A DNA stretch of 64,000 nucleotides from positions 496,001-560,000 of the forward strand of contig NZ_JAGIOI010000001.1 of NCBI RefSeq assembly GCF_017876675.1. Direction: 5' to 3'. The translations under genes were made by a program, and so were the position numbers. Below are positions 26,991 through 29,943 of this stretch, piece by piece; the first letter of the stretch is position 1, and every line of letters begins with the position of its first letter. The notes beneath the pieces are model-generated. The model was not told where the DNA came from, searched no databases, and worked only from the letters and a program-made list of their open reading frames with translations. This stretch comes from Arthrobacter stackebrandtii (lineage in GTDB: Bacteria > Actinomycetota > Actinomycetes > Actinomycetales > Micrococcaceae).

Positions 26991-26995
26991 GACCC
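26991..26995. repeat. Left copy of target-site duplication GACCC
   Basis: GACCC here and at 29939-29943 flank the insertion block. Both sit in the same codon phase of the DUF559 gene. Confidence 0.75.
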
Positions 26996-27121
26996 CCTAC
27001 GTGTCAGGCTGGGACGGTACCACGGTGAAAGAGCAAGTCCGTTTGATCGCGTGGGGCGAGAACCAGGAAACCAGTAATAATGTCTAGTCCAGTTTTGTCC
27101 GCGGTAGGCCATGATGGTGGC

Positions 27122-27514
27122 ATGAGTAGTTCCGGTCCGCGTGCCGGTGGCCCGACCCGTCGTAGGTCGTACACCCCCACGCAGAAGCTTGATTTTTTGG
27201 TCCAGTACGAGGCCGCTGTCCTCTCCAATGAAGGTGGTGCTTTCCTGCGCCGCGAGGGCTTGTATTCCTCCCAGATGACCGAGTGGCGCCGCCTGCGTGA
27301 CGCCGGTGTCCTGGAGGGCAAGAAGGCCGGGGAGTCCATCGGCAGGCTCTCCAAGGACCAGGCCGAGATCGCGCGTTTGCGCCGCCAGTTGGAGGTGACG
27401 CAGGGCCGGTTGAAGACCTCCGAGGCAGCCCTGGGTGTGCTGGGAAAACTTCACGCTCTCTTGGAGGATCTCTCCGAGAGGGAGGAAGGCGGGCCGAAGC
27501 CCGGCAAGCGCTGA
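27122..27514 (+). CDS. IS3-family transposase OrfA
   Basis: 130 residues from ATG 27122 (after GGTGG). Helix-turn-helix region RRSYTPTQKLDFLVQYEAAV, EGLYSSQMTEWRRLRDAGVL, then a leucine-rich coiled coil (IARLRRQLEVTQGRLKTSEA) used for multimerisation. The stop overlaps the OrfB start as TGATG, so OrfB is probably made by re-initiation instead of the slippery frameshift used by many IS3 elements. Confidence 0.88.
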   Translation: MSSSGPRAGGPTRRRSYTPTQKLDFLVQYEAAVLSNEGGAFLRREGLYSSQMTEWRRLRDAGVLEGKKAGESIGRLSKDQAEIARLRRQLEVTQGRLKTSEAALGVLGKLHALLEDLSEREEGGPKPGKR

Positions 27515-28288
27515 TGGCCGCCTACAAGGAACTCCTCGCAGTGGGGGTTCCCCAGCGTCGTGCCGCGGTTCTGGCCGGCGTCTCGAGGACGACCATGAAT
27601 CGGAAGCCGGCCGAGCCCCGGGACCATGCACCGGTGGTCCCGCCGAACAAGCTCAGTCCCGCCGAACGGACCGAGCTTCTGGCCGCGGTGAACTCGCCCG
27701 AGTTCGTTGATCTGGCACCCCAGCAGGTCTACACCAAGCTCCTTGATGTGGGCGTCTATCTGGGCTCTGTCTCAACGATGTACCGGGTGTTGGAGGAGAA
27801 CCAGCAGGTCAAGGAACGCCGCCGCCTGGCCAAGCATCCGCCCCGGGCCGTGCCTGAGCTCGTGGCCAACGCACCTGGCGAGGTGATCACGTGGGATATT
27901 ACGAAATTGGCTGGCCCGGTCAAGGGTAAATACTTTGACTGCTACATGGCCGTGGACATCCATTCGCGGTTCATCGTCGGCGCGCACGTGCACGCCACCG
28001 AAACCGGCGATTTGGCGGTGGAGATGATGAAGGAAATGTTCGGCATCCACGGCATCCCGCACGTCCTTCACGCCGACCGCGGCACCTCGATGACGTCGAA
28101 GACCGTGGCCACGCTGCTGGCCGATTTGGAAGTCACCCAGTCCCATTCCCGACCCCGGGTCAGCAACGATAATCCGTGTTCTGAGAGCTTGTTCAAGACA
28201 ATGAAGTTCGGCCCCACTTTCCCCGAACGCTTTGCATCCCTGCCCGATGCCAGGGCCTTCATCAGCGAGTTCGTGGACTGGTACAACT

Positions 28289-28581
28289 GTGAGACTTGTT
28301 TTAGCTGGTCTGGGACTGGCTGGCAGGATAGTTACCGGCCGCTCCACACTGCAGGCGTGACCCTTGGTACAACTGACCCTCATGGTGTCCTTTTGTGGAC
28401 TTGTCCGTCTACCAGGATGGTTCGGCCGGTACCCGTCCGGCCCACCACGGTAGCTTGATTAGAAGATTGTCCACCCTCACGGGCGTGACCCCTCACAGTT
28501 CTGTTCCGTAGTGATTCCTACCCGGACTTGTACCGGCCGTCAACGGCCACCAACCAAGTCCATCACAAAAGGAAAAGCACG
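28289..28581 (+). ncRNA. Candidate bridge RNA in the IS110 left end
   Basis: IS110 recombinases are known to use a bridge RNA from the non-coding end. Here TGGTACAACT (28365-28374) repeats exactly the left target (28279-28288), and TCATGG (28380-28385) is the complement of CCATGA at the right target (29686-29691). Both lie inside a predicted stem: TACCGGCC 28333-28340 with GGCCGGTA 28424-28431, and TCCACA 28343-28348 with TGTGGA 28394-28399. Further on, TAGAAGA (28460-28466) repeats the element's right end (29677-29683), and CAAGTC (28555-28560) complements its left end (GACTTG 28293-28298). The order target guides, then donor guides, matches known bridge RNAs. RNA ends are not defined. Confidence 0.7.
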
Positions 28582-29670
28582 GTGACCGCTCTGTCTATCG
28601 TCTCTCATTGCCACCCATTTGTCGTGGGTGTCGACACTCACGCACGCAACCACGTCTACGCCATCCTTGACGCCACCAATGGCGCACTGCTGGATACGCA
28701 GTCTTTCCCGACTACCGCGGCCGGTATCAACCGCGCCATCAAATGGGTCGCACGCCGCACCAACGCCGACGCCGATACCCTCTGGGTTATCGAGGGAGCC
28801 GCGTCCTACGGAGCGATCCTCGCCGGTACCGTAGCCGCCCATGGATTCCCCGTTACCGAGGCTCCTCGTATGGATGCCAAGAAGAACCGCGGTGTCGGTA
28901 AAACCGATGCCTTGGACGCCCACCGGATGGGCATGGCCGTGCTGTCGTTGCCGGTCGAGAAACTGCGCTGCCCCCGCTTGAATGAAGGGATCCGCCAAGG
29001 CTTGCGGATCCTGGTCACCGCCCGCGAGTCCATGACCAAGGGCCGTACCCGTTCGATCAACGCATTGAACGCTTTGGTACGAAGTAACAATCTCGGCATT
29101 GATGCCCGCAGGAAGCTCACCCCAGTCCAGATCGAGGAGATCTCACGCTGGCGTGAACGCGTGGAAGAACTGGCTTTGAGTATCGCCCGCTCCGAGGCGG
29201 TCCGCCTCGCCAAACACATCCTGGACCTCGGTGAGCAGTTGGAGTCCAACGAGCAAAAGCTGGACGAGCTGGTCAAGGTCAGCGAAGCCGCGCCCCTGCT
29301 TGAGGAGAAGGGATTCCAGGCGGTCGCCGCGGCGAAATGTCTGGTGGCGTGGTCGCACGAGGGACGGGTCCGTAGCGAGGCTGCCTTCTCCTGTCTGGCC
29401 GGCGTGAATCCCATCCCCGCATCGTCCGGGAACACCGTTCGGCATCGGCTGAACCGTGGAGGCGATAGAAGGCTCAACAGTGCTCTTCACATGGCCGCGA
29501 TCACCAGGATGACCTACGACTCTGAAACCTGCGACTACGTCGAGAAACGACGTGCCGAAGGTAAGACCGACAAAGAAATCCGACGTTGCATCAAGCGCTA
29601 TCTGGCCCGTCGGGTGTTCAGGATTCTGACTGCCGCGGCTCAGGCGACAAAGGTGCAGGAAGCGGCTTGA
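28582..29670 (+). CDS. IS110-family transposase (DEDD recombinase)
   Basis: 362 residues from GTG 28582 (after AAAGGAAAAG). The N-terminal RuvC-like DEDD domain shows Asp in FVVGVDTHARNHV, Glu in LWVIEGAASYG and two Asp in VGKTDALDAHRMG. The C-terminal domain has AFSCLAGVNPIPASSGNTV with the serine-bearing PASSG and RLNRGGDRRLNSALH, where the recombinase serine is expected. The frame is intact and catalytic motifs are present, so it could be active. An upstream ATG-type start at 28528 would run through the RNA region. Confidence 0.93.
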   Translation: MTALSIVSHCHPFVVGVDTHARNHVYAILDATNGALLDTQSFPTTAAGINRAIKWVARRTNADADTLWVIEGAASYGAILAGTVAAHGFPVTEAPRMDAKKNRGVGKTDALDAHRMGMAVLSLPVEKLRCPRLNEGIRQGLRILVTARESMTKGRTRSINALNALVRSNNLGIDARRKLTPVQIEEISRWRERVEELALSIARSEAVRLAKHILDLGEQLESNEQKLDELVKVSEAAPLLEEKGFQAVAAAKCLVAWSHEGRVRSEAAFSCLAGVNPIPASSGNTVRHRLNRGGDRRLNSALHMAAITRMTYDSETCDYVEKRRAEGKTDKEIRRCIKRYLARRVFRILTAAAQATKVQEAA

Positions 29671-29938
29671 CAGATATAGAAGAGTCCATGACCACCAACA
29701 CTCCGGAATCGGCTTCCACACACCCGCAAACGTCCACTACGGCCTCGCCGCCGAGATAGCCAGGCAACGCTCCGAAACACTCGCCGCAGCCCGGTCAAAA
29801 AACCCGATTCGCTTCAACAAAAACACTGACCCCAAGATCCTCGACCTGCCCGGGCCGGCGTGGATCAACAAACCAAAGGAAAGCACCCAGAAACAAGCCG
29901 CCTAACTCCCGTTGGTACCACCCGACTTGAAAAATTCC

Positions 29939-29943
29939 GACCC
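29939..29943. repeat. Right copy of target-site duplication GACCC
   Basis: Matches 26991-26995 and restores the DUF559 frame when one copy is removed. Confidence 0.75.

What the first reader, a model, noticed from the sequence alone, without database searches (positions are those of the whole stretch)
28289..28581. IS110 left end looks like a bridge RNA whose guides match its own insertion site
The 10-mer TGGTACAACT occurs in the element's non-coding left end (28365-28374) and as the exact sequence at the left junction (28279-28288). Six bases on, TCATGG is complementary to CCATGA at the right junction (29686-29691). Both sit within two nested stems (TACCGGCC/GGCCGGTA and TCCACA/TGTGGA). Further along, TAGAAGA matches the right end of the element and CAAGTC complements its left end. 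Order and logic fit the target-binding then donor-binding loops of IS110 bridge RNAs. The gap between the two target guides is only five bases, unlike IS621, so the loop architecture may differ.
Basis: partly seen in the sequence, partly recalled or inferred. Interest (0 to 1): 0.9.

Follow-up and report, generated by a model that had tools for sequence, protein, structure and literature searches.

The report
IS110 bridge RNA targeting transposase genes
This jumping gene carries a guide RNA whose loops spell out where it lands, here a conserved stretch inside the genes of other jumping elements; the RNA is of a known kind, but its choice of victims is worth a look.

Summary
The left target guide is confirmed: TGGTACAAC (28365-28373) equals the left flank of five of the six copies in the genome and differs by one base from the sixth (four distinct contexts). 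Over 45 insertions in 32 guide groups, left flanks follow their own guide (z 10.6 or more, 0 of 20,000 permutations); 10 held-out groups agree. The true right guide is TTGTG (28393-28397), across that hairpin (0 of 20,000). The right donor guide is TCACAG (28493-28498), not CAAGTC. The layout is IS621-like, two internal loops on covarying stems, so the "five-base gap" is an artefact. What stands out is the target: WYN-motif codons of IS3-type transposases. Among relatives, transposase genes or ends of IS481, ISL3, IS256, other IS110 elements and, on weaker evidence, IS21 and IS982 are hit. New member of a known kind with an unusual target choice.

The parts
28288..29686 (+). IS110 element (1399 bp), from TGTGAGACTTG to ATAGAAGAGTC
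   Evidence: Six copies in the genome share this stretch; an uninterrupted relative of the carrier gene, L157, fixes the empty site TGGTACAAC^CATGA
28304..28531 (+). predicted bridge RNA (about 228 nt), bounded by an 11-bp closing helix (28304-28314 with 28521-28531); RNA ends are not known
   Evidence: RNAalifold consensus of 32 left ends, coordinates, pair counts; the closing helix is 99.1% paired but has no pair with a change on both sides
28344..28421 (+). target-binding stem-loop: stem 28344-28361 with 28403-28421, apical hairpin 28375-28389
   Evidence: Stem helix 4: 9 of 12 pairs with changes on both sides; apical hairpin: 4 of 6
28365..28373 (+). left target guide TGGTACAAC, same sequence as the top strand of the left flank 28279-28287
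28393..28397 (+). right target guide TTGTG, pairs with CATGA at 29687-29691 (3 Watson-Crick and 2 G-U pairs); followed by G28398 (core) and A28399-C28400 (handshake-like, facing donor GT)
   Evidence: the reading of GAC as core plus handshake is inference from PMC11208158 (passages)
28443..28513 (+). donor-binding stem-loop: stem 28443-28454 with 28503-28513, apical hairpin 28469-28489
   Evidence: helices 7 and 8
28461..28466 (+). left donor guide AGAAGA, same sequence as the right end of the element (29678-29683)
   Evidence: last base covaries with the element's right end in 30 of 30 guide groups examined (23 A/A, 7 G/G)
28493..28498 (+). right donor guide TCACAG, complement of CTGTGA at the left junction (28287-28292)
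   Evidence: invariant in all 32 rows; in held-out relatives TGTGA goes with TCACA (26 loci) and TGTAA with TTACA (4 loci), 30 of 30 recognised of 32
28582..29670 (+). IS110 recombinase gene (362 aa, GTG start)
   Evidence: PF01548 and PF02371 over cut-off, NF033542 'IS110 family RNA-guided transposase' over cut-off
29667..29672 (+). TTGACA, -35-like box overlapping the stop codon; in the circular form it would lie 17 bp from GAGACT in the left end
   Evidence: TTGAC in 30 of 32 guide groups, spacing 17 in 25 of the 30; promoter activity not tested
27514..28287 (+). 5' part of the interrupted IS3-type transposase gene, cut after ...FVDWYN
   Evidence: PF00665 and PF13683 over cut-off; NF033516 (IS3) 122.4 bits, below its 160-bit cut-off
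26995..29939 (+). 2945-bp block (IS3-like carrier plus IS110) present three times, about 99.9% identical or more, with different outer flanks

Best explanation
The left end encodes an IS621-like bridge RNA. Its target loop (9-nt left guide TGGTACAAC, about 5-nt right guide TTGTG) brings the recombinase to TGGTACAAC^CATGA, the codons of the WYNH(D/E) motif of IS3-type transposases. Its donor loop (AGAAGA and TCACAG) holds the RE-LE junction of the excised circle. Top strands are exchanged right after the C that ends the left target, which leaves LT-C^TGTGAG on the left and GAGTC^RT on the right. Shown here: guides, structure, covariation with targets and donor, and site use in this genome. Inferred from IS621: expression, RNA-protein complex, strand chemistry, circle. 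I further infer that the lineage spreads by settling in genes of other insertion sequences, which are multicopy and dispensable.
For: Six copies at four distinct contexts: five at TGGTACAAC (three of them in near-identical carriers) and one at TGGTACACC. Own guide beats permuted guides in 32 groups (left z 10.6, or 14.1 with a shift allowed; right z 12.1; 0 of 20,000 each), in 22 less related groups (z 9.9, 11.7, 11.5) and in 10 held-out groups at 54-61% protein identity (left z 7.1, right z 6.3). Right-guide agreement stops after position +5 (0.96, 0.89, 0.70, 0.62, 0.78, then 0.18). Left donor guide concordant in 30 of 30 groups; handshake-like base at position 8 beats permutation (8 of 20,000). 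Right donor guide concordant in 30 of 30 recognised held-out loci, 4 of them changed on both sides. The 66-pair structure exceeds all 500 shuffles on all five measures. Six uninterrupted TGGTACAACCATGA sites (4 of 395 family genomes) all read WYNH(D/E) in transposase-like frames, judged by eye.
Against: In the window's own element the right guide pairs with CATGA only through two G-U wobbles, and L038, with the same guides, has 3 of 5 right positions unpaired. Of 45 rows, 7 have two or more unpaired right positions of five (L009, L038, L075, L086, L106, L107, L108) and 5 agree with their left guide at 4 or fewer of 8 bases (L009, L011, L083, L093, L104); L089, left out of the counts, also fits poorly. 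One unoccupied site in the genome (L172, TGGTACAAC^TACGA) would pair fully if wobbles count, so occupancy is not explained by pairing alone. There is no RNA evidence. Only one core base (C) is common to target and donor, unlike the CT core of IS621.
Confidence: 0.96

Rival explanations
1. One reading: both target guides in one terminal loop (TGGTACAACT, five bases, TCATGG), a new bridge-RNA architecture.
For: TCATGG is an exact complement of CCATGA at the right junction of five of the six copies, a better Watson-Crick match than TTGTG.
Against: The segment forms an apical hairpin with changes on both sides in 4 of 6 pairs, and its sequence does not follow the right flank in relatives (z -1.4 over 32 groups, z -0.8 over 22; z 0.8 over 10 held-out groups). 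Close relatives L037 and L038 have TCAGGG there.
Confidence: 0.02
2. No guide RNA: the left end carries a copy of the target by chance or by capture, and the protein alone chooses the site.
For: The 10-base match alone is reached in about 1.5 to 2.4% of random draws.
Against: Two separate target guides and both donor guides covary with the flanks and ends across relatives, and the stems covary.
Confidence: 0.01
3. The preference for other insertion sequences is an accident of where repeated, dispensable DNA survives insertion, not a programme of the clade.
For: Several relatives sit in or beside ordinary genes or in DNA where nothing was recognised, and differing targets are usual for the family (PMC11187229, section read). 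No background count was made.
Against: Up to seven kinds of IS appear as targets (two of them on weak evidence), and two different guides, three bases apart in the motif, hit the YNH codons of IS3-type and IS481 transposases.
Confidence: 0.5

Closest known systems
IS621 bridge RNA (IS110 group; PMC11208160, PMC11208158; passages and one section seen)
   Same: Bridge RNA in the left end; target loop and donor loop, each with a left guide that reads the bottom strand and a right guide that reads the top strand; nine-base left guide; right guide that ends at the fifth base (IS621 positions 10-14); handshake-like bases next to the right guides; RE-LE junction that could rebuild a promoter
   Different: Last left-target base is C in 42 of 45 rows where IS621 has T of its CT core, with one base common to target and donor in the window copy; 11-bp closing helix and linker hairpin (28424-28442), which the IS621 passages I saw do not mention; protein only distantly similar (phmmer E 6e-4); target is a coding motif of IS3-type transposases rather than REP DNA
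ISCro4 recombinase (PDB 9t56)
   Same: Closest solved chain by sequence (E 2e-5)
   Different: Distant; its RNA was not compared here
IS4321/IS5075 (IS1111 group), which target the terminal repeats of Tn21-family transposons
   Same: An IS110/IS1111 element that uses another mobile element as its landing site (title of Partridge and Hall 2003 seen in the reference list of PMC11187229)
   Different: IS1111 type with subterminal inverted repeats; targets a terminal repeat, not transposase codons
ISEc21 / ISMch6 (IS110 type; PMC11187229, passages)
   Same: Upstream non-coding region, bottom-strand match before top-strand match, natural redirection by changed guide bases
   Different: One pair described in the passages seen; here 32 guide groups from one clade

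Membership tests
IS110-group element with bridge RNA | DEDD (RuvC-like) plus Tnp-domain recombinase | tested here: met
   PF01548 68.3 bits, PF02371 58.7 bits, NF033542 168.6 bits, all over cut-off
IS110-group element with bridge RNA | Long non-coding left end upstream of the gene, short right end | tested here: met
   294 nt before the GTG start, 16 nt after the stop
IS110-group element with bridge RNA | Conserved RNA structure with target loop followed by donor loop | tested here: met
   66 pairs, 96.1% of cells paired, 20 pairs with changes on both sides, 0 of 500 shuffles as high
IS110-group element with bridge RNA | Left and right target guides match the bottom and top strand of the target, in that order | tested here: met
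IS110-group element with bridge RNA | Left and right donor guides match the element ends | tested here: met
   Left: 30 of 30 groups concordant. Right: invariant in the main set, 30 of 30 recognised held-out loci concordant, 4 changed on both sides
IS110-group element with bridge RNA | Core dinucleotide shared by target and donor (CT in IS621) | tested here: inconclusive
   Last left-target base is C in 42 of 45 rows and T in 3; the base before it is A in 31, C in 6, T in 6, G in 2; donor has TC there, so in the window copy only C is shared
IS110-group element with bridge RNA | RNA is made and bound by the recombinase | not testable with these tools
   needs RNA sequencing of the purified complex
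IS110-group element with bridge RNA | Promoter rebuilt at the RE-LE junction of the circle | tested here: inconclusive
   TTGAC in 30 of 32 groups, 17-bp spacing to the left-end hexamer in 25 of 30; activity unknown
IS1111 group | Bridge/seek RNA in a long right end | tested here: not met
   RNA is in the left end, right end is 16 nt
IS1111 group | Subterminal inverted repeats of 7-17 bp | not tested
   not searched for
Rfam families | Match to a curated RNA family | tested here: not met
   0 matches at E up to 5 in 28200-29800

The most novel reading that the evidence does not exclude
A clade of actinobacterial IS110 elements has made other insertion sequences its regular landing sites. Its bridge RNAs are programmed, and repeatedly re-programmed, to conserved transposase codons (WYN in IS3-type, HYNH in IS481, C-terminal codons of ISL3) or to IS ends (IS256, probably IS21, even the right ends of other IS110 elements). 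Each insertion destroys a competitor, so the RNA-guided element may act as a natural brake on other transposons.
Probability: 0.35. Interest if true: 0.65.

Novelty: new member of a known kind. Interest (0 to 1): 0.5.

Why it matters
It is a natural experiment in bridge-RNA reprogramming: one clade, 32 guide groups, each with its target, enough to read guide lengths, register and handshake pairing from genomes alone. If the target bias holds against a background, it makes a specific question testable: whether RNA-guided IS110 elements limit the load of other insertion sequences. The clade is also a set of guide-target pairs for recombinases far from the IS621 branch.

Tried and rejected
Rfam: no match. 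Uninterrupted TGGTACAACCATGA in the genus: 0 of 23 genomes; in the family 4 of 395 genomes, 6 sites, against 2 sites of the reversed control pattern. Viral contigs: no relative. Pfam on ten further flank reading frames: nothing. Literature on IS110 elements that target IS3-type transposase genes: searches listed no paper whose title or abstract start says so; of those lists I read passages of PMC2516522 and PMC12500396, which do not say it either. Only those searches were made, and most subscription papers are not held. Hitch-hiking of the IS110 inside its carrier (three 2945-bp blocks) cannot be told from three independent insertions at the same guide-set site, so I make no claim.

Rows dropped before counts; eight loci whose ends were not recognised (L074, L084, L085, L087, L089, L091, L102, L105) left out, and one with a masked flank (L115) left out; L001, L003 and L072, L073, L077 left out as the same sites as L002 and L037, L038, L040; L118 not aligned; 32 of the 36 left ends listed were given (L009, L107, L108, L112 left out). 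L009 and L112 not recognised, so 30 of 32 groups; 17 of 32 held-out loci recognised, 15 not (among them L147); L141 then dropped because its right end looked wrong, so 16 rows in 10 groups went into. L148, L150 and L151 were fetched but not aligned.

Full report
What is there. The window lies in an unnamed 4.43-Mb single-contig genome; the closest named relatives at this locus are Arthrobacter records (6 of the 7 loci, the seventh is Paeniglutamicibacter). The element spans 28288-29686 and encodes a 362-aa protein with both IS110 Pfam domains and a match over cut-off to NCBIfam 'IS110 family RNA-guided transposase'. The nearest solved chains are ISCro4 and IS621, both distant. It interrupts an IS3-type transposase gene right after the codons for FVDWYN.

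Copies in the genome. Six copies exist, plus one distant hit of 66% over 191 bases. Three share a 2945-bp block at about 99.9% identity or more, two lie in two other IS3-type genes, one elsewhere. Left flanks are TGGTACAAC in five and TGGTACACC in the sixth; right flanks begin CATGA in five and CAGAA in the sixth. Joining flanks gives in-frame WYNH(D/E) in the three IS3-type contexts, and an uninterrupted relative of the window's carrier (L157) shows TGGTACAAC^CATGA with nothing lost or gained. The six uninterrupted TGGTACAACCATGA sites found in 4 of 395 family genomes (the reversed control pattern gave 2 sites) all read WYNH(D/E) in transposase-like frames; three of them are copies of one element in one genome, and the frames were judged by eye.

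Target guides by covariation. Relatives were taken from the listing (69 of 395 family genomes matched at E 1e-90 or better); 80 stretches were fetched, not every row. Seven bases after the right junction agree with the complement of 28391-28397 at 4.38 against 2.05 (z 12.1), the agreement lying in the first five. Each: 0 of 20,000 permutations. In 22 less related groups z is 9.9, 11.7 and 11.5. The hairpin that holds TCATGG gives z -1.4. Misfits: 5 of 45 rows agree with their left guide at 4 or fewer of 8 bases (L009, L011, L083, L093, L104), and 7 of 45 have two or more of five right positions unpaired even with wobbles (L009, L038, L075, L086, L106, L107, L108).

Donor side. The element's right end reads AGAAGA or AGAAGG, and the left donor guide has the same last base in 30 of 30 groups examined (23 A, 7 G). 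The right donor guide TCACAG is invariant in the main set; in the held-out loci a left end TGTGA goes with TCACA (26 loci) and TGTAA with TTACA (4 loci in two lineages, L010 and L142-L144), no exception among 30 recognised of 32. Bases after the right donor guide, which in IS621 pair with the incoming target strand (PMC11208158, passages), match target position 8 more often than permuted (8 of 20,000) and position 7 likewise (101 of 20,000), position 6 not (2,435 of 20,000). The nearly fixed GAC after the right target guide would pair with the donor's GTC after exchange; that is inference.

Structure. The consensus of 32 left ends has a closing helix, a 5' stem-loop, the target stem-loop, a linker hairpin, the donor stem-loop and a 3' hairpin. 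Counted over 66 pairs, 96.1% of cells pair, 20 pairs have changes on both sides, and none of 500 shuffles reaches any of the five measures; the structure was derived from the same alignment, which the tool warns favours it. The strongest support is in the target stem (9 of 12 pairs) and its apical hairpin (4 of 6). The closing helix and the linker hairpin are conserved without changes on both sides. Single-sequence folding of the window's left end is only modestly more stable than shuffles (z -2.11 and -1.87).

Targets of relatives. Flanking reading frames show an IS3-type transposase at L037, IS481 at L082 and L088 (cut after ...HHYNH), ISL3 at L080 and L114 near the C-terminus, IS256 (Transposase_mut) beginning beside L100, an IS3-type HTH_Tnp_1 frame beginning beside L092, and a weak IS982 match at L101 (24.9 bits, cut-off 130, no Pfam hit). 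Several NCBIfam scores are below cut-off because the frames are fragments; the Pfam scores of L037, L080, L082, L088, L092, L100 and L114 are over cut-off. The right flank of L041 (target shared by L039 and L078) matched 9 plasmid records over about 55 bases; of two inspected, one match lies just upstream of istA of an IS21 element and the other just upstream of a gene called transposase next to an ATP-binding protein, while the best hit lies under a DUF3644 gene, so 'IS21 end' is a weak inference. Of the 22 less related groups, 8 lie in or beside another IS by this evidence (L002, L039, L080, L082, L092, L100, L101, L114; L039 and L101 weak), 3 lie in or beside other genes (L090, L094, L117), 5 gave nothing (L011, L079, L103, L106, L116) and 6 were not scanned (L009, L040, L075, L086, L093, L109). 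No background rate was measured. In the held-out set, L142, L143 and L147 sit in the right end of another IS110, whose transposase C-terminus (30-37% identity to clade members; the window's own protein gave no hit) is encoded in the left flank, and by eye their guides match that end; L144, with the same guide as L142, does not show it.

Against a simple pairing rule. In this genome TGGTACAAC sites followed by AGGCG (L171), CAATA (L169) and CAGCA (L170) are empty, in line with 2 or 3 unpaired right positions, but TACGA (L172) is empty too although it would pair if wobbles count. The window's own target needs two wobbles on the right.

Promoter. TTGAC stands before the right end in 30 of 32 groups, 17 bp from the left-end hexamer (GAGNNT in 29 of 30) in 25 of those 30 when ends are joined, as described for the IS621 circle (PMC11208158). 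Here TTGACA overlaps the stop codon.

Known and new. Bridge RNAs, their two loops, guide lengths, natural redirection and the family's varied targets are in print (PMC11208160: section 12 and passages; PMC11187229: section 13 and passages; PMC11208158: passages). IS1111 elements that target Tn21 ends or attC sites are known. Durrant et al. also drew a bridge RNA for ISAar29 (legend seen), which may belong near this clade; I could not compare it. What I did not find, within the searches named in Tried and rejected, is a report of an IS110 lineage aimed at transposase codons of other insertion sequences.

Noticed in passing
L142, L143, L147 (left flanks): Relatives inserted in the right end of another IS110 element; by eye their guides match that end, so some bridge RNAs seem aimed at kin.
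   Followed up: partly
window 26995-29939, L164, L165: Three near-identical 2945-bp blocks (IS3-like carrier plus IS110) with different outer flanks: either the interrupted carrier still moved, helped in trans, or three carriers were hit at the same site.
   Followed up: partly
L088 right end: A second right-end-like stretch (ATAGAAGCTTC directly before ATAGAAGAGTC) suggests a scar of an insertion by an L142-like element.
   Followed up: no
L106, L107, L108, L110 (one genome): Four insertions at CAA(A/T)ACGAC^A(C/A)(C/T)T; three of the four fit the right guide poorly, and the target class is unknown.
   Followed up: no
L095-L099 (one genome): Five copies at GTACGAC^GGCGG in different surroundings, the left guide shifted by one base against the target, a clue to tolerance of the left guide.
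   Followed up: partly
window 29667-29672: TTGACA -35-like box overlaps the stop codon of the recombinase gene.
   Followed up: yes
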